From Methylobacter sp. S3L5C (GTDB lineage Bacteria > Pseudomonadota > Gammaproteobacteria > Methylococcales > Methylomonadaceae): DNA of 64,000 nt. The position numbers and the translations under genes were made by a program. The notes under the pieces were generated by a model that was not told where the DNA came from, did not search any database, and was given only the letters and a program-made list of their open reading frames with translations. The DNA lies in contig NZ_CP076024.1 in the NCBI RefSeq assembly GCF_022788635.1, forward strand, positions 2,790,001 through 2,854,000, written 5' to 3'. The stretch's first letter is position 1, and each line of letters begins with the position of its first letter. Below, piece by piece: positions 37,808 through 44,531 of this stretch.

Positions 37808-38109
37808 GTTTGGGGATAATTATTCAGCCCCCGGCTTTGAAAAAGAGGAGTTAGGGGCAAGCCATTCCGAGAGTGTGTTGATTTTTGGTTGTAACTGACT
37901 GGCAAATCACGGCCAATACCGGACACCGAACAACACTGAAGTTATTGGTGCTTGCTTGAATTTATTTTTGAGAGAAAATATTTTTTTAGTTTGTTGTTGT
38001 GTTCTATCAGTTTAGTCGGTGGATTAAGCGGTGTGGAACTTAATGGCATAACAAAGTGACTATCAAAAATAAATATGATAGAATCGACAAAAATAAATAA
38101 AAGCTATAA
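37808..38109. other. Intergenic region
   Basis: About 300 bp of AT-rich sequence without a gene. It leads up to the IS4 insertion site. No integron integrase gene is found here although the cassette array begins just beyond. Confidence 0.5.
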
Positions 38110-38119
38110 GGATATACAC

Positions 38120-39637
38120 TAATACTGCTACCGCAAATATAAAAAACAAAGTCAGAGGCTTAAACATGCCTCGTTTCTTGGCACCATCAGCAAAGGAAAG
38201 GGTTTTGGTCGGCGTTTGACTGCTCTTGGCTGGCTCTTACGTTTTTGTTTTCCAATGGCCGTTGATGCCATCGCTTTTAATAATTCACGCAAGGCGCTTA
38301 TGAGTTGGTTCCCTGTCAAGCCTACCATCTGCTTGGCGGCTTGAATGACCAGTTGCACTGCTGACCTGAAACTCAGTTGGCGGGGTATCTTCTCATGCAG
38401 GCTGGCTGCCTGTGCCAAATTGCCACGAATGATGTTGTATGCCAATAAGTGGATAGCTATCTCCTTGCTTACCATGTCAGGTTTTTTGCACCGTAATATT
38501 TCCATGCCCATATTGGTTTTGATGGAACGAAAATCCAGCTCAATTTTCCAGCGCTGCTTATAAAGCATAGCCAGCTCTTGCTTATGAAAGCCCTTTGCAT
38601 TTAGTAAGGTGGTCAAATAGATTCTGCCGTTTACCGCAAACTCTCGGACGGTAATCGATTCCGGCAAGTCGCTATAGTCCTGCTTGGACATCCACACCGG
38701 TTTCCGTTTGGGTTTCGTCCAGTCAATCAAATGATCTCTTGCACCCAGGTAGACACCCAAGCTGAAATCTACTTTTTTCCGGGCATGTAGTGGAAATAGC
38801 ACAGGAATTTCACGAGCCTGCAAGAGCGCAATAATGGCGAAGGTACAGTAATAGCGGTCCGCCATCAGCAAGTCGCCAACTGACAGGCTGCCAAACAGTT
38901 GACTGAGTAACGATGTTTCGCCAGTTCCTTTGCCTTGATAGGCTCCCAGGCTATAGTCGAGCACGGTTCCTGCAGCCAAAGAAATCAACACAACCATGCG
39001 AGCAATCGGAAAGCCCAAACCAGGCTTTTGACTATCCAGCTGAGGAAAGTCTGCCTGATTCTCTGGTGTATCTGGCATTTGCACCGTTGCTCCATCAGTA
39101 AGGACAACGTTATAACCCTTCCATCGCCACGCGGCCAGAGACTGGTTATGAAGACGCAAACCAGCAGCTGTGGTGGCTGCTCTGAGTTCCTTTAGTGGTA
39201 AGCGTTGTCGGGCTTTACAGTAAGGTCCCGTGTTAACCGTATTGGCTGATTGTCCATCGACGATACGATCAATCAATACGCCTGCCACTGCCTGTTTACA
39301 GGAACCGTCATCACTTAATACTTGGAAAATGAAAGCTTTAAGCGTGACTAAGGGCAAGAACACCGAGGAGCGTTTATGCGGGGTATTGGCGATAATGTTG
39401 GTAATGCTGTCGGCTGAAAAAAATCCTCAACACCTAGTCCTTGGGATTGCAAAAATGACTTTTTGAAGCGGTCAATTTGCTGCTGAATACGGTTTTTTTT
39501 AATAGCTGGCATGGTTAAGTTATTGATCAGACTTTGTAATACTCAAAATTCTACCAGAATAGTGCTTGATCTTTATCTTATTATTTGCGTATCTAACTGT
39601 AACTTATAGATTAATTACATTTGCGGTAGCAGTATTA
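38120..39637 (-). mobile_element. IS4-family insertion sequence, full length
   Basis: A 1518-bp element with TAATACTGCTACCGCAAAT inverted repeats at both ends, flanked by the perfect 10-bp direct repeat GGATATACAC (38110-38119 and 39638-39647). The size of the duplication and the transposase type agree with the IS4 family. It is the intact relative of the deleted copy at 9766-10635 and the end fragment at 18400-18539. Confidence 0.95.
38152..39363 (-). CDS. IS4-family transposase
   Basis: A 403-residue frame starting at a GTG. The DDE core includes NVVLTDGATVQMPDTPENQA and DLLMADRYYCTFAIIALLQA, and the IS4-type Y-R-E-K signature is LYKQRWKIELDFRSIKTNMG. An upstream frame beginning at ATG 39512 (MPAIKKNRIQQQIDRFKKSF) encodes what looks like the N-terminal domain and meets this frame at a run of seven T (- strand) near 39413-39425, where a -1 shift would fuse them into about 450 residues. 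Either the two parts are joined by frameshifting or the N-terminal part is lost. Confidence 0.88.
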   Translation of the reverse strand: MFLPLVTLKAFIFQVLSDDGSCKQAVAGVLIDRIVDGQSANTVNTGPYCKARQRLPLKELRAATTAAGLRLHNQSLAAWRWKGYNVVLTDGATVQMPDTPENQADFPQLDSQKPGLGFPIARMVVLISLAAGTVLDYSLGAYQGKGTGETSLLSQLFGSLSVGDLLMADRYYCTFAIIALLQAREIPVLFPLHARKKVDFSLGVYLGARDHLIDWTKPKRKPVWMSKQDYSDLPESITVREFAVNGRIYLTTLLNAKGFHKQELAMLYKQRWKIELDFRSIKTNMGMEILRCKKPDMVSKEIAIHLLAYNIIRGNLAQAASLHEKIPRQLSFRSAVQLVIQAAKQMVGLTGNQLISALRELLKAMASTAIGKQKRKSQPRAVKRRPKPFPLLMVPRNEACLSL

Positions 39638-39666
39638 GGATATACACCTTATTTTGGGATTTTAAA

Positions 39667-39700
39667 AGACACCTTTTTAGGTGTCTACTTTACGTTAGGC
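39667..39700 (+). other. Recombination core at the left edge of the cassette array
   Basis: A small hairpin (39667-39673 with 39680-39686) is followed by GTTAGGC at 39694-39700, matching the integron core GTTRRRY. The first cassette would begin at the TT of this core. The upstream half of a normal attC is not seen, so this may be an attI-like site or a truncated attC. Confidence 0.5.
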
Positions 39701-39730
39701 TTTCCAAAAGAAAAAATAAAAAGAGATAAT

Positions 39731-40072
39731 ATGACTATGGTTTTTTGCAGAGGTTATGGGAAAGAACTTCATGAAACAGCTTCAATGTGTCCGCATTGTG
39801 GCTTTGTTCAACCAATTCAATCTGTACTTATAAAAGATTCACAATGGATGTCAGTGACCGCACTTGTATTATCGGTCATGTATTTTCTTAGTTGGTTTAA
39901 TCTGCCTGATTGGGATAAGGATGTGAAGGTTGGGCTGTGGATGTTTTCAATTTCTAGTCTCGTACTTGCTGTTACAAGCATACAACAAAAAAGGAACGGT
40001 AAAATATTTTCGTTTATCAGCATTGCTGTATTTGTCATTACTATGCTCATACTAATTGGGAAATCAACGTAG
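39731..40072 (+). CDS. Membrane protein with N-terminal zinc ribbon, cassette gene 1
   Basis: A 113-residue protein from ATG 39731. The N terminus has a zinc-ribbon-like pattern, CRGYGKELHETASMCPHCGF, although the first pair (C-x3 without second Cys) is incomplete. It is followed by three hydrophobic segments (MSVTALVLSVMYFLSWF, VGLWMFSISSLVLAVTSI, FISIAVFVITMLILIG). The layout resembles small zinc-ribbon membrane proteins of unknown function. It fills an integron cassette that ends at the attC site 40131-40182. Confidence 0.65.
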   Translation: MTMVFCRGYGKELHETASMCPHCGFVQPIQSVLIKDSQWMSVTALVLSVMYFLSWFNLPDWDKDVKVGLWMFSISSLVLAVTSIQQKRNGKIFSFISIAVFVITMLILIGKST

Positions 40073-40130
40073 ATATTAAAAGTGCAATAAAATGGGCTGA
40101 GGTACGAAGCCCATCAATCGAGAAACAATC

Positions 40131-40182
40131 GCCTAACTCAACGTTCCAGCGGAGCTTCGCTACGCTGAACTTTGTGTTATGT
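40131..40182 (+). other. Integron attC site 1
   Basis: R'' is GCCTAAC (40131-40137), L'' is CAACGTTC and L' is GAACTTTG, R' is GTTATGT (40176-40182), with CAGCG/CGCTG pairing inside. GCCTAAC is the exact complement of the TTAGGC that opens the cassette at 39695, as expected for a circularised cassette. This makes the 482-bp unit 39695-40176 a convincing gene cassette. Confidence 0.8.
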
Positions 40183-40217
40183 TAAAAAATAAACCTTAAT
40201 TTCTCGAGAGAAAATAT

Positions 40218-40670
40218 ATGAGTGAACTATCGATACTTATGGCGTTTGTTTGGATTATTGCAGAGGTTATTGGTTACTTTAGAAAAACAGAATTTTCACA
40301 GCGCATGAAAACGGGAGCAAAATGGTCAGTAGCGTTTGTTTCTTTAAGCACTTATAAAATCTATAAAATCGATGGAGCTGATAAAACTTCTTTGGTATAT
40401 TTCGCCAGCGCAGTTTTCTTATATACAGCAGTTGCTATAGCAATTTATTTTTATAGGTTAAAAGCGTTTAATTTCATCAAAAAACAATTCGAAACCTCTA
40501 CAGGCAATATTTCTGAATCAGAAAAGAGCATAGGAAAACTAATTGTTTTTCAATTTTCTAATGGATTAACTCAGTTAATTGCGATCATTGCGGGTTTTTA
40601 TACTGGAGTTTTAATAAATGGTCTTGTGTTAGCGGCTATTATGCTTGTAAATCTTTCCGTAGCTGGATAA
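40218..40670 (+). CDS. Small membrane protein, cassette gene 2a
   Basis: A 150-residue protein with about four hydrophobic segments (MAFVWIIAEVIGYF; WSVAFVSLSTYKIYKI; LVYFASAVFLYTAVAIAIYF; LIAIIAGFYTGVLINGLVLA). It is AT-rich and not recognised. It ends 4 bp before the ADP-ribosyltransferase-like gene, so the two are probably co-expressed; it might be its anchor, channel or immunity partner. Confidence 0.65.
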   Translation: MSELSILMAFVWIIAEVIGYFRKTEFSQRMKTGAKWSVAFVSLSTYKIYKIDGADKTSLVYFASAVFLYTAVAIAIYFYRLKAFNFIKKQFETSTGNISESEKSIGKLIVFQFSNGLTQLIAIIAGFYTGVLINGLVLAAIMLVNLSVAG

Positions 40671-40674
40671 TACA

Positions 40675-41301
40675 TTGAAAAAATCAGATAGCGATTTTTT
40701 AAGCAACAATTTATCAATTGATATAGATTGGCTGGTACAAGAATTAAACTCTCCAAAAATAATCCAATTCAAACAAATACTGGGCTTATTTATTTCTAGT
40801 GCGATAGATTTGCTTGGGAAAAATAATTCAGAAAAAGAAATACTTGAACTTTTTAAATTATCCATTGCATCAAACAATAATGAGAAATTATACGAAATCA
40901 TTGATTCACTAAGGCAGGCGTTCACATCTTATGCGTCAGGCGGGTTATTTGACCTGTATATTTATCAATCAAATGAATCATGGTATCCAAAAATAGTGCT
41001 TAAATCTGTACTTAAGCCTAATGACATTTCAGTTTTATCAAGTTCTATTGATGTATATCGAGGTTGTGATATTTCAGAATTTAATAGTAAGAGATACGGT
41101 CAGTCTTGGAGTACATCAATTGAAGTAGCCAAAAAATTTGCATACCAACACTATAATTCACAACCTTGGTATAAAAAAGAAAAAAGGTGTGTTTTGAAAG
41201 CAACAATAAAAAAAGAATCTGTATTTTTCTCACGACAAAATCACTACGAGAAAGAAATAGCTGTGAATATTGAAAAATTATCCAATGTACAAAAAACATA
41301 A
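40675..41301 (+). CDS. Putative ADP-ribosyltransferase-like protein, cassette gene 2b
   Basis: A 208-residue soluble protein from a TTG start. Residues 125-200 show the R-STS-ExE pattern of Arg-type mono-ADP-ribosyltransferases: Arg129 in VYRGCD, Ser-Thr-Ser at 146-148 in SWSTSIEVAKKFA, and Glu192-Lys-Glu194 in YEKEIAV. The first 100 residues are helical and unrecognised. If the pattern is real, it would transfer ADP-ribose from NAD to a target and could act as a toxin or defence effector. This rests on motif spacing only. Its stop codon lies within an ACATAAC core-like sequence (41296-41302). Confidence 0.55.
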   Translation: MKKSDSDFLSNNLSIDIDWLVQELNSPKIIQFKQILGLFISSAIDLLGKNNSEKEILELFKLSIASNNNEKLYEIIDSLRQAFTSYASGGLFDLYIYQSNESWYPKIVLKSVLKPNDISVLSSSIDVYRGCDISEFNSKRYGQSWSTSIEVAKKFAYQHYNSQPWYKKEKRCVLKATIKKESVFFSRQNHYEKEIAVNIEKLSNVQKT

Positions 41302-41309
41302 CAAAAACA

Positions 41310-41476
41310 TGTACTCGGACAAAATAAAGTATCAGGCGATTACCGATAGCGTCGGTGTGCCAATTAACACGCAAAGTCCACTCGATATGGGCGGCGCGTT
41401 CATCTGGTTGTTCTTTTCGTTTATCAATCGCCAAGAGAAGGCTAAAAAACCGACCTCCGCAGGAAGTCAGCAATGA
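41310..41476 (+). CDS. Small protein upstream of exported cassette protein
   Basis: A 55-residue frame from ATG 41310 (MYSDKIKYQAITDSVGVPIN) with one possible membrane segment (GGAFIWLFFSFI). Its TGA overlaps the ATG of the next gene by 4 bases, which supports real translation. No similarity recognised. It could also be the tail of a gene fused to the cassette by deletion. Confidence 0.45.
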
Positions 41477-42114
41477 ACTCAATAATTCCAAAATATCTAT
41501 TCTGCGCGTTAGTTGTTTTTGCCCTGCTTGGTAATTCTGCGTTCGCAGAAGACACTTCATTTCGTTGGGTTCAGTTAGCCTACGGTATCTCGCTAGACGT
41601 TCCGTCACATTGGACGGTATTCTCGCAAGACAACCGCAGAAATCTCGGCGCTGCTGGCCAAGCAATAACTGACAACGCTGGCATTAAAGAGCTGAGTGGT
41701 CGTAAAGAATCCTTGCTGGCGATGAACGCCGCACCCAATCCAACCGGAGCAATGATTGGTGTAAGCATTACATCGCCACCTGATTACACGCAGAACGATC
41801 TTGCGGCTGTAACGCCAGGAGACCTTAAAGAGGTTAGCGCAGAAGCGCTAGGCATGTTTAGAAAGCTTGAAGCATCTGGCGGACCAAAGATCATTGAGAT
41901 GCAGCCTGTACGCATTGAAAAATTCAATAATTATCGCGTTTTGGTTATGCCGTACGTTCGTACAGGCATTAATGGGCCTTCACCTTGGCAAGTGACGCAA
42001 TACAAAATTCCTGTTTCCAATCGGCTTATCGAGATAACTCTATCACACAGGCAATCGGATGCCATTGTTTGGCGGCCAATACTGGAAAGAGTAAAGCGCT
42101 CGGTGCAGTTCTGA
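41473..42114 (+). CDS. Exported protein of unknown function, cassette gene 3
   Basis: A 213-residue protein with a signal peptide (YLFCALVVFALLGNSAFAED, cleavage after AFA). The mature part (WVQLAYGISLDVPSHWTVFS; VRIEKFNNYRVLVMPYVRTG; ISLSHRQSD-type end) looks like a compact periplasmic domain of the PsbP/photosystem-like or lipid-binding kind, but I cannot assign it. It is followed 20 bp later by attC site 2, as is normal for a cassette gene. Confidence 0.65.
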   Translation: MNSIIPKYLFCALVVFALLGNSAFAEDTSFRWVQLAYGISLDVPSHWTVFSQDNRRNLGAAGQAITDNAGIKELSGRKESLLAMNAAPNPTGAMIGVSITSPPDYTQNDLAAVTPGDLKEVSAEALGMFRKLEASGGPKIIEMQPVRIEKFNNYRVLVMPYVRTGINGPSPWQVTQYKIPVSNRLIEITLSHRQSDAIVWRPILERVKRSVQF

Positions 42115-42133
42115 TGTATCCCGACAACAAATC

Positions 42134-42202
42134 GCTCAACACGGACGTTCAAAAGCGGCGCTTCGCTCTGCTTTAGAACGTCGGTTAGCTCAAACGTTAT
42201 GT
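42134..42202 (+). other. Integron attC site 2
   Basis: R'' is GCTCAAC (42134-42140), L'' GGACGTTC pairs with L' GAACGTC (42176-42182), an inner AAAGC/GCTTT stem is present, and R' is GTTATGT (42196-42202). The tail TTAGCTCAAACGTTATGT closely resembles the 3' half of known aadA-type attC sites. Confidence 0.8.
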
Positions 42203-42291
42203 GCCTCTTGCCGAACGAAGTTTAGTGATGATCTGAAGGTCGGTGAGAGATGTAATTCGGTGAAGGGAATATGATATGAAAAGAGTAAGAA

Positions 42292-43089
42292 ATGAAATGG
42301 TATGAGTTACTAGCTTCGATTATAAGCGCTGGCTTCTGGGCATGGATTGGTTTAATTTTTTTTGGAGGTGCGATCGGTACTACAATTATTTTCTTTCCCT
42401 TCGGCACTTTGCCTATCCTATTCTTTGTAGGGGTAATTTTATACTTTTATGCTGATGATCTGTATCAGAAAAATGTTGGAAGTAAAGTAAGTAGTGGAAT
42501 TACTGAGTTTCCCCTTGAAGCCTCTATGTGCTTATACGGTACCAATGAAAATAAGATCAACTTCAGTGAAGATGGCAGTAGTGTAGTTCTAACCATTGAA
42601 ACTCCCAGCTATATCAATCTAGATACTCCTGCTAATGTAAGAGAATATCTGAAAGAAAAAATGCGGGGCATTGACAGCGTTGATCTCAATTGGGTGGATC
42701 AATACACCATAACTGCTATTAGCGAAAACGAAGAAGTTGGGTCGCACCAGATAGTTGTTTCCATTCCGGATGAGGTGGTGTTAACTGATAAATACATTAA
42801 CCATGAGATCAAAAATGTTGGAAGAGTTTTCAAACGAAACAACGCGGGAAACTCTATTCGGTGGTTGCTATATCCTCAAGGAGAACGTCGAACCGAGAGA
42901 AAAGACGGAAGGCTATTTGTATACATAGACCGTTTGCAAATAGTCCCTGGGATTCTTGATGAAAAGCAGAAAATAATGTCAGAAAAGCAGATTACTAGAA
43001 ATATAAAGAACCGCCTATGGAATAGAGTTGATGTTAAATGCATCAGTCTAGATGAAAAAACTTATTGCGGAGAAATACTGGGCGTTTAA
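42292..43089 (+). CDS. Membrane-anchored protein of unknown function, cassette gene 4
   Basis: A 265-residue protein. Two hydrophobic segments at the N terminus (ASIISAGFWAWIGLIFFGGA; LPILFFVGVILYFYADDLY) anchor a hydrophilic domain of about 200 residues (INFSEDGSSVVLTIETPSYI; TDKYINHEIKNVGRVFKRN). No family recognised. It follows attC site 2 directly, so it should be a cassette gene, but no attC is found after it. Confidence 0.6.
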   Translation: MKWYELLASIISAGFWAWIGLIFFGGAIGTTIIFFPFGTLPILFFVGVILYFYADDLYQKNVGSKVSSGITEFPLEASMCLYGTNENKINFSEDGSSVVLTIETPSYINLDTPANVREYLKEKMRGIDSVDLNWVDQYTITAISENEEVGSHQIVVSIPDEVVLTDKYINHEIKNVGRVFKRNNAGNSIRWLLYPQGERRTERKDGRLFVYIDRLQIVPGILDEKQKIMSEKQITRNIKNRLWNRVDVKCISLDEKTYCGEILGV

Positions 43090-43129
43090 TCGATTAATTC
43101 AGGAATCATATTTGTTTAGCTTATTTATG

Positions 43130-43240
43130 GGTGCATTTAAACAAACGACAGGATTGTTTCATAGGATTTCTTACAAAGTCATATCTGGCGTGGCTTTGAT
43201 CTACTTTCTGGCTTCCCAAAAAAGCACCCGTTTTTGATAG
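43130..43240. mobile_element. Fragment related to the MITE-like element at 18540
   Basis: It starts GGGTGCATTTAAACAAACGA, nearly identical to the left end of the 18540-18906 element, and shares the later TGGCGTGGCTTT. A GGTGC/GCACC pair near 43130 and 43225 could mark its ends, giving a shorter member of about 100 bp. It lies where the last cassette should have its attC. Confidence 0.5.
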
Positions 43241-43458
43241 CTAAAATTGGGAAGTGGGTAATTGACGCTAAGCCTTATCAGCAATTCTCATTATGACGAA
43301 AACCTATCCAATTTCAGGCTTTGGGGGTCGGTTGATTGGGCTTCCCGGCTTATAAGACCAGCCTTCCAGCATGAAATCGAGCAGGTGCTCCCAGTTATCG
43401 AAACAAAGGTAGGTAGTCAGTGCCTTCATATCATCGAACAAACGTCTGCGTGAAGGTA

Positions 43459-43563
43459 GCCATGTCGGGTTAGCGATAGCGTAACCCGACATTTTAATTA
43501 TTCATAGCCAATATTATCAGCCCCGTAACAAATGTGTCGGGTTACGGCTTTCGCCTAATCCGA
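43459..43563. repeat. REP-like palindromic repeats
   Basis: Two stem-loops of the CGGGTTA..TAACCCG kind (43465-43491 and 43531-43563) in tandem. Such palindromes are common as dispersed intergenic repeats in many bacterial genomes. Confidence 0.6.
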
Positions 43564-43888
43564 CGGGACTAACAGTAATTTTATTTTCAGCCAGTTATGG
43601 CGTGGCGTTAACAGAACCAGCGCAACATAAGGATCAACACAGTAAAATCAATACGCCACGAAAGATAAAGCCCTGCATGGGCTTAATACATCAGCATAGG
43701 GTGTCAGCCCTATGAAATTAGAATATCTATAAACCCCAAGCCCTGCAAGGGCGAAATCAAGCGGCTTAGGGTGCATGATTATCGTCGCTAAGGTATTATG
43801 CCCTTGCAGGGCTTTAGCATTGTTTTTTTGATTTCTGGCAATAAATGCCCCTTCGACTTAACTACATCGTGGGAACTTTAAATAAAAT
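43564..43888. repeat. Non-coding stretch with GCCCTGCAAGGGC-type repeats
   Basis: Several copies of a short motif (AAGCCCTGCATGGGC, AAGCCCTGCAAGGGC and the reverse GCCCTTGCAGGGCTT) are spaced over about 140 bp between 43665 and 43820. They can pair with each other. No gene is seen. This appears to be a dispersed repeat cluster between the cassette array and the HigBA-like module. Confidence 0.5.
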
Positions 43889-44191
43889 TCAGACTGATTC
43901 CAGTTCTATTCTTACTTTTTTTCCAAGAGCGGCAGCGGCACTCATTAAGGTTGTAAGGGTTAAACTGGTGTCTTTTTCATCCAACAACCTATTAAGCGAT
44001 GCTCTGCTGGTATGCATTTTTTTTGCCATTGCCGTTTTACTCAGCTTAAGCGAAGACATACCTTCTGAAATTTGCCAAGCAATAACACGTTTTGTTGCTA
44101 CGGCAGTTACTTCTTCGAGAATCGCTTCTTCGCTAAGAAAGTCGTCAAAACTGCTGCCAATATGAAGGTTTTCTTTGTGTTGATTATTCAT
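43889..44191 (-). CDS. HigA/XRE-family antitoxin
   Basis: A 100-residue HTH protein (SLKLSKTAMAKKMHTSRASLNRLLDEKDTSLTLTTLMSAA) that follows its toxin reading frame with a 4-base overlap, the HigBA order. It would bind the operator and neutralise the toxin. It is intact. Confidence 0.88.
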   Translation of the reverse strand: MNNQHKENLHIGSSFDDFLSEEAILEEVTAVATKRVIAWQISEGMSSLKLSKTAMAKKMHTSRASLNRLLDEKDTSLTLTTLMSAAAALGKKVRIELESV

Positions 44192-44531
44192 CTTTTCCCC
44201 CGTAATGTCTTTAATCTTTGTTTTGCCAAATCAAGCTCTGGTTTTGGTGTTTTTTGATCTTTCTTGATAAAGCCATGCAGCAGAATCATTGTTTTGTTGA
44301 CGATTACAAACAGAACTCGCGCTATCCGATTATCAAGCTGTGTCTGACTTCCCAAATGTCGCCTTCAATGTGATCGACTAACGGCATACCAAGAGGCCAA
44401 CCGAATTGCACCGTTTTAATATCTTCGCCAATAGTTTTTCTATCTTGAGCAGATAAATCTTTTAACCATTCTCTAACGGGTTCGCTACCTGCTTCAGTTG
44501 CAAAAAAATTAACAGAAAGTATTGGTGTCAC
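44188..44531 (-). pseudogene. HigB-like (Gp49/DUF891) toxin, frameshifted
   Basis: It starts MTPILSVNFFATEAGSEPVREWLKDL and proceeds normally to DIWEVR, then goes out of frame and stops after 69 residues. In a second frame the missing part is clear: QLDNRIARVLFVIVNKTMIL and GFIKKDQKTPKPELDLAKQR. The shift lies near 44338-44345. The full toxin would have about 113 residues. The product cannot be an active RelE-fold ribonuclease. Confidence 0.85.

What the first reader, a model, noticed from the sequence alone, without database searches (positions are those of the whole stretch)
39667..43089. Integron gene-cassette array without an integrase
Two attC sites with R'', L'', L' and R' boxes and inner pairing were found. 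The first cassette is framed by TTAGGC at its start and GCCTAAC in its attC, the exact relationship expected of a real cassette. The second starts with TTATGT, and the complementary ACATAAC occurs at 41296, right at the end of its last gene. No intI is in the window, and an IS4 copy sits 47 bp upstream of the first core, possibly having removed or separated it.
Basis: partly seen in the sequence, partly recalled or inferred. Interest (0 to 1): 0.7.

Follow-up and report, generated by a model that had tools for sequence, protein, structure and literature searches.

The report
Integron remnant that lost its integrase
A small relic of a gene-collecting element (an integron) in a probable methane-oxidising bacterium still has its docking site and two of its exchange sites but has lost the enzyme that moves the genes; this is a known kind of remnant, well preserved at its edge.

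Summary
A covariance model built from 22 attC sites of relatives (none from this window) finds exactly the two sites named, 40131-40182 (29.0 bits) and 42124-42202 (27.7 bits), both in array polarity. In the 4.8 Mb genome (150 of 733 candidates scored) they are the two best hits; the third has 18.9 bits, E 2. No integron integrase reaches the family cut-off.

New here: the sequence before the first core (39638-39700) looks like an attI site. It ranks 1 of 127,954 positions in the window for a matrix of eight relatives' attI sites. So this is probably the left end of a former integron, not cassettes dropped at a chance site. Beyond the IS4 copy, at the right distance and strand, lies a possible 35-codon stub of intI (suggestive only). 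The IS has a perfect 10-bp target duplication, so it probably did not delete intI.

In relatives, 34 of 35 attC sites complement the start of their own cassette. By that rule the second interval is two fused cassettes: one ends at ACATAAC (41296-41302) without the rest of its attC. No attC follows the last cassette. A decayed CALIN with its attI: known kind, modest interest.

The parts
37942..38049 (-). possible 5' stub of intI (35 codons, ATG at 38049-38047), suggestive only
   Evidence: Only minus-strand ATG of the 199-bp flank, 119 bp from the core with the IS left out; start plus [KR][LIFM][LIMV][DE] motif at the right place in 0.0004-0.0005 of shuffled flanks (rule set after seeing the stub). 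Against: profile score -2.3 bits; summed alignment score to 20 IntI not above shuffles, p 0.26; single best G020 p 0.004, G031 p 0.032.
38110..38119 (.). left target-site duplication GGATATACAC
38120..39637 (-). IS4-family insertion sequence (transposase ORF 38152-39363); at least 15 further places in the genome carry its right end
   Evidence: NCBIfam NF033592 204.9 bits; terminal inverted repeats and duplications; (40 of 71 candidates scored)
39638..39647 (.). right target-site duplication GGATATACAC
39638..39700 (+). attI-like site: hairpin 39667-39686, then crossover core GTTAGGC 39694-39700
   Evidence: Rank 1 of 127,954 positions (25.7 bits, next 18.0) for a matrix of 8 relatives' attI; upstream part alone rank 3; 15-bp exact match beside intI of G057; one exact copy of a 19-mer in the genome
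39695..40176 (+). cassette 1, complete; ORF 39731-40072, zinc-ribbon-like N-terminus
   Evidence: zinc-ribbon/TM2 relatives, mostly over the first 29 residues
40131..40182 (+). attC1 (R'' GCCTAAC 40131-40137, R' GTTATGT 40176-40182)
   Evidence: 29.0 bits, E 1.1e-4
40177..41302 (+). cassette 2, lacking the rest of its attC; ORFs 40218-40670 and 40675-41301 (the latter ADP-ribosyltransferase-like by recalled motif)
   Evidence: 7/7 complement of start and R'' ACATAAC 41296-41302; relatives
41296..41302 (+). orphan R'' box ACATAAC with the stop codon TAA inside
   Evidence: same arrangement in L101
41303..42196 (+). body of a further cassette whose start is missing; ORFs 41309-41476 and 41473-42114
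   Evidence: attC2 R'' does not fit the interval's start (4/7)
42122..42202 (+). attC2 (R'' CGACAAC 42122-42128 imperfect, R' GTTATGT 42196-42202)
   Evidence: 27.7 bits, E 2.2e-4 over 42124-42202
42197..43089 (+). last cassette, no attC hit after it in the window; ORF 42292-43089 without match in 250 other order genomes or in plasmids

Best explanation
This is the decayed left end of a chromosomal integron. Shown: two attC sites, one complete cassette, an interval that breaks the cassette rule, a last cassette without attC, an attI-like sequence at the left end, and no integrase over the cut-off in the genome. Inferred: intI once stood to the left, facing away, and was deleted (perhaps all but its first 35 codons) before or independently of the insertion of an IS4 copy into the intI-attI spacer; the array then froze, having lost one attC behind its R'' box and the attC of the last cassette. 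Without IntI nothing should move now. Cassette 1, bounded by attI and attC1, should still be excisable if an integrase came in from outside.
For: attC model: two hits, both in array polarity, best two in 4.8 Mb. attI matrix: best of 127,954 positions; 15-bp exact match beside a relative's intI. Cassette-start rule: 34 of 35 intervals in relatives at 6/7 or better, 30 exact; shuffled partners mean 16.2, maximum 24; cassette 1 obeys it 7/7. attC1 98% identical over 49 bp to sites in G012 and G032. No IntI over cut-off; the best recombinase (292 aa) scores 184.6 against 265 and matches the IntI profile in two pieces, 4-179 and 238-315. Loss of intI is common in the genus: of 34 other genomes 6 have a match over the cut-off (3 full length without stops, 1 full length with a stop, 2 truncated with stops) and at least 4 more have fragments of 128-210 bits.
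Against: The intI stub is not significant by profile or by summed alignments. The upstream part of the attI matrix alone ranks third in the window, and the type is not universal: only 6 of 17 stretches upstream of relatives' intI resemble the window's at p 0.02 or less, one of them (G042c) not at an attI position, and the attI candidates of G040, G048, G053 and G059 fit the 14-site matrix poorly. None of the four genomes in which one contig spans cupin to cox (G003, G004, G005, G031) has an integron there. Model E-values are rough, and the genome search scored 150 of 733 candidates.
Confidence: 0.85

Rival explanations
1. Cassettes were dropped here at a non-classical site (attG) by an integrase acting from elsewhere; there never was an integron at this place.
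For: No integron at this place in the four genus genomes whose contig spans it; about half of Xanthomonas genomes have CALINs away from the integron locus (PMC12444791, passages).
Against: The first core has an attI-like sequence upstream, best of the window, with a 15-bp exact match beside intI of G057; attG sites are said to show significant divergence from classical att sites (PMC12901181, passages).
Confidence: 0.09
2. The IS4 copy removed intI by an adjacent deletion when or after it inserted.
For: The IS lies in the spacer where intI and attI part.
Against: Both 10-bp duplications are present and identical; an adjacent deletion would be expected to remove one.
Confidence: 0.04
3. Chance palindromes; not an integron.
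For: Single boxes such as ACATAAC are common (9 in the window against 8.06 expected).
Against: Model hits at E 1e-4 in array polarity, best two of the genome, near-identical sites in relatives, plus the attI-like edge.
Confidence: 0.02

Closest known systems
CALIN (cluster of attC sites lacking an integron-integrase)
   Same: Two attC sites within 2 kb, same orientation, no intI over the cut-off in the genome; the two-site threshold is that used in PMC12444791 (passages).
   Different: Keeps an attI-like edge, and perhaps the first codons of intI; one attC is reduced to its R'' box.
CALIN with its own attI in Shewanella prophage M16-3 (PMC9892861, section 12 read)
   Same: A lineage-type attI at the start of an integrase-less array.
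   Different: That one lies in a prophage that also has a complete integron; here the genome has no IntI over the cut-off.
Chromosomal integrons and separate attC arrays of Methylococcus strains (PMC8527097, passages)
   Same: Methane oxidisers (here inferred from a pmoA/amoA-family gene); complete integrons, separate attC sites and a lone integrase are reported.
   Different: Kinship to this genome not established by name; attI or intI remnants are not described in the passages seen.

Membership tests
CALIN | at least two attC sites close together in one orientation | tested here: met
   40131-40182 and 42124-42202, both bottom-strand hits
CALIN | no integron integrase nearby | tested here: met
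   none over cut-off in the genome
Complete integron | intact intI | tested here: not met
   at most a 35-codon stub
Complete integron | attI next to the first cassette | tested here: met
   by sequence likeness only:
Complete integron | attC R'' complementary to the start of its cassette | tested here: inconclusive
   cassette 1 7/7; the second interval 4/7 and read as a fusion
Functional cassette array | sites recombined by an integrase | not testable with these tools
   needs an assay
ADP-ribosyltransferase of the R-S-E group (ORF 40675-41301) | R, STS and ExE motifs | tested here: inconclusive
   In 3 sequences YRGC, WST and two E two residues apart are invariant; in 5 sequences YRGC, W145 and E192 are. 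No useful Pfam, NCBIfam, PADLOC or solved-structure match; motif names are recalled; the fold could not be run

The most novel reading that the evidence does not exclude
Cassettes in these integrons become locked by a recurring event that cuts an attC right at or behind its R'' box and fuses two cassettes: seen here (after 41302) and, in a tail 93% identical to that of cassette 1, in a same-genus genome (L090, about 870, after GCCTA). It could be an integrase error at the R'' box that turns movable cassettes into fixed genes before the integrase is lost.
Probability: 0.1. Interest if true: 0.5.

Novelty: new member of a known kind. Interest (0 to 1): 0.3.

Why it matters
It shows how a chromosomal integron may die: an attI-like edge, cassette ends and perhaps the first codons of intI outlive the integrase, so origin by loss can be told from insertion at a chance site. 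The relatives hold full, broken and fragmentary intI genes, so the order of loss could be followed within one genus. The array also carries a gene family whose relatives lie next to attC hits in Methylotenera and Vibrio (3 of 7 relatives looked at).

Tried and rejected
Rfam scan of 36-48 kb: no attC family matched; the six hits (Acido-Lenti-1, miRNA models) lie at 43.4-43.8 kb and are below gathering scores. First home-made attC scan missed site 2, whose R'' is imperfect; the covariance model replaced it. The 25 attC sites were picked by hand from the longer candidate lists and; 22 went into the model (left out: L049_509, L091_2047, L089_9522). Three of the 22 (L025_4020, L027_1632, L090_328) are of the attC1 type, so attC1 is less independent of the model than attC2. 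On the model alignment two of five measures do not clearly exceed shuffles (pairs with a change on both sides 7 against 6.5, reached by 269 of 500; further pair types reached by 31 of 500). Profile and alignment tests of the intI stub were not significant; a rule with a motif chosen after seeing the stub gave 0.0004-0.0005. attI matrix: the first version (14 sites) included G060, picked because it looks like the window, and five of unsure or divergent alignment (G038, G040, G048, G053, G059); repeated with 8. The joined flanks carried one extra base at the junction; corrected. Cassette-start rule: one search used 44 of the 60 hits (32 intervals, 31 at 6/7 or better); one search repeats it with all 60 (35 intervals, 34; the miss is in L025). 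Cassette proteins 42292-43089 and 40675-41301: 1 of 251 order genomes each, the own one (genomes drawn evenly from a larger group). ORF 41473-42114: no plasmid match. PADLOC: nothing; PHROGs: only families of unknown function, best 2.4e-6 for ORF 40675-41301. attC hits near relatives of ORF 40675-41301: in 3 of 7 loci (L099, L101, L102), none in 4 (L098, L100, L103, L104). Promoter scan: 10 promoter-like sites against 14.4 expected; terminator-like 8 against 4.5, one being the attI hairpin. Structure prediction could not be run.

Full report
Where it is. The window is bases 2,790,001-2,854,000 of a single-contig genome of 4,815,745 bases, 100% complete. The genome holds a pmoA/amoA-family gene (429 bits; 0 of 14 control genomes), so it is probably a methane oxidiser. 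No name was available.

The attC sites. I scanned loci around intI genes of relatives, picked by hand 25 attC sites that lie on the array side of an intI or resemble attC1, and built a covariance model of the folded bottom strand from 22 of them, leaving out the window's own two. The named structure is kept in 82.9% of cells, against 72.0% in shuffles and 32-43% when slid by 1 to 3 columns; two of the five measures do not clearly exceed shuffles. With filters off over both strands of the window the model gives 29.0 bits at 40131-40182 and 27.7 bits at 42124-42202, both on the bottom strand, as an array read left to right requires. The genome search, which scored 150 of 733 candidates, gives these two and one more at 18.9 bits, E 2.0. 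I see no sign of a second array. attC1 is of a type found in several genomes of the genus: 98% over 49 bp in G012 and G032, 96% in G033.

The attI-like site. Before the first core lies GACACC-TTTTTA-GGTGTC-TACTTTAC-GTTAGGC. Next to intI in relatives I found GTCTACTTTAC-GTTA (G057, exact over 15 bp), GTCTAATTATA-GTTAGGC (G003), GTCTAATTTTA-GTTAGGC (G035), GTCCATTTGTA-GTTAGAC (G039) and others. A matrix of 8 such sites puts 39700 first of 127,954 positions (25.7 bits, next 18.0). With the GTTRRRY core left out it ranks third. The exact 19-mer occurs once in the genome. Not all relatives share the type: 6 of 17 upstream stretches resemble the window's at p 0.02 or less, one of these not at an attI position, and four attI candidates fit the 14-site matrix poorly. 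I take the site as attI, which makes this an integron end rather than a chance drop.

The missing integrase. TIGR02249 finds nothing over its cut-off in the genome. The best protein, a 292-aa tyrosine recombinase, scores 184.6 bits against a cut-off of 265 and is as close to the XerA model (184.4 of 220). Of 34 other genomes of the genus 6 have a match over the cut-off: 3 full length without stops, 1 full length with a stop, 2 truncated with stops; at least 4 more have fragments of 128-210 bits. Left of the IS, the only minus-strand ATG lies 119 bp from the core with the IS left out, and starts MPLSSTPLNPPTKLIEHNNKLKKYFLSKINSSKHQ, where G020 has MPANTTPEQPKKLLDQVRDKIRFKHYSLS. Tests disagree: the profile gives -2.3 bits, the summed alignment p is 0.26 with G020 at 0.004 and G031 at 0.032, and a rule on place and motif, set after seeing it, is met by 0.0004-0.0005 of shuffles. 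I hold it as suggestive.

The IS. It is IS4 family, 38120-39637, with identical 10-bp duplications and at least 15 further places in the genome. An insertion with both duplications intact probably did not itself take intI away.

The cassettes. In relatives the R'' of an attC complements the core at the start of its own cassette in 34 of 35 intervals at 6/7 or better, 30 exactly; shuffled partners give 16.2 on average and at most 24. Cassette 1 obeys it (7/7). The interval between attC1 and attC2 does not (4/7), but ACATAAC at 41296-41302 does (7/7) and contains the stop codon of the 40675-41301 ORF. A relative of that protein in Methylotenera versatilis (37% in the best segment) ends in the same way, its TAA inside the R'' of an attC hit of 25.9 bits. 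In Vibrio proteolyticus and on a Vibrio harveyi plasmid, relatives lie among attC-like hits, several of them weak, and there the gene faces against the array. The loci of four other relatives, the Shewanella plasmid included, show no attC hit. I conclude that the interval is two cassettes fused behind the R'' of the first. No attC hit follows the last cassette; repeats shared with other places of the genome begin at about 43128.

What the genes are. ORF 39731-40072 has a zinc-ribbon start like proteins annotated 'zinc-ribbon domain and TM2'. ORF 40675-41301 has conserved residues (YRGC, W, E; WST and a second E in three sequences) that I recall as marks of ADP-ribosyltransferases; no library confirms it. 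The others have no useful match.

The place. In four genomes one contig spans the cupin and cox genes: they are next to each other or about 0.1-0.2 kb apart in G003, G005 and G031, and G004 carries an 896-aa ORF between them. In the others looked at the contigs end before the far side. So no integron was seen at this place outside this genome.

Verdict. A decayed integron with an attI-like edge kept, to be filed as a CALIN. Known kind; the preserved edge and the fused cassette are its points of interest.

Noticed in passing
L090:821-940 (G033 contig 86): A cassette tail 93% identical over 55 bp to that of window cassette 1 stops matching after GCCTA, inside R'', as if the attC body had been lost there too.
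   Followed up: partly
L101:4989-5753 (Methylotenera versatilis): Relative of the 40675-41301 protein ending directly in an attC hit; also among attC-like hits in Vibrio proteolyticus (L102) and on a Vibrio harveyi plasmid (L099), but not in four other relatives' loci.
   Followed up: partly
window 37857-37925: Part of it matches a same-genus contig in reverse (L089, 86% over 43 bp), and homology with relatives' cupin flanks ends here: perhaps a dispersed repeat next to the lost intI.
   Followed up: no
window 43128-43565: Stretches with copies elsewhere: 43128-43197 at five other places of the genome, 43279-43460 and 43464-43565 in many genus genomes.
   Followed up: no
window 43669-43816: Three weak matches to Acido-Lenti-1 RNA below its gathering score.
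   Followed up: no
window 43889-44531: Helix-turn-helix (HTH_37) and Gp49-like ORFs on the minus strand, a likely toxin-antitoxin pair; a 93% identical copy in G003.
   Followed up: no
L009:1483-2361 (G000:C1 about 2577.6-2578.5 kb): 292-aa tyrosine recombinase about equally close to the integron integrase and XerA models, below the cut-offs of both.
   Followed up: partly
L025, L028, L032, L034 upstream of intI: Same-genus attI sites share TATACGACA-like copies and TGTCGTATA before the core, a different type from the window's.
   Followed up: partly
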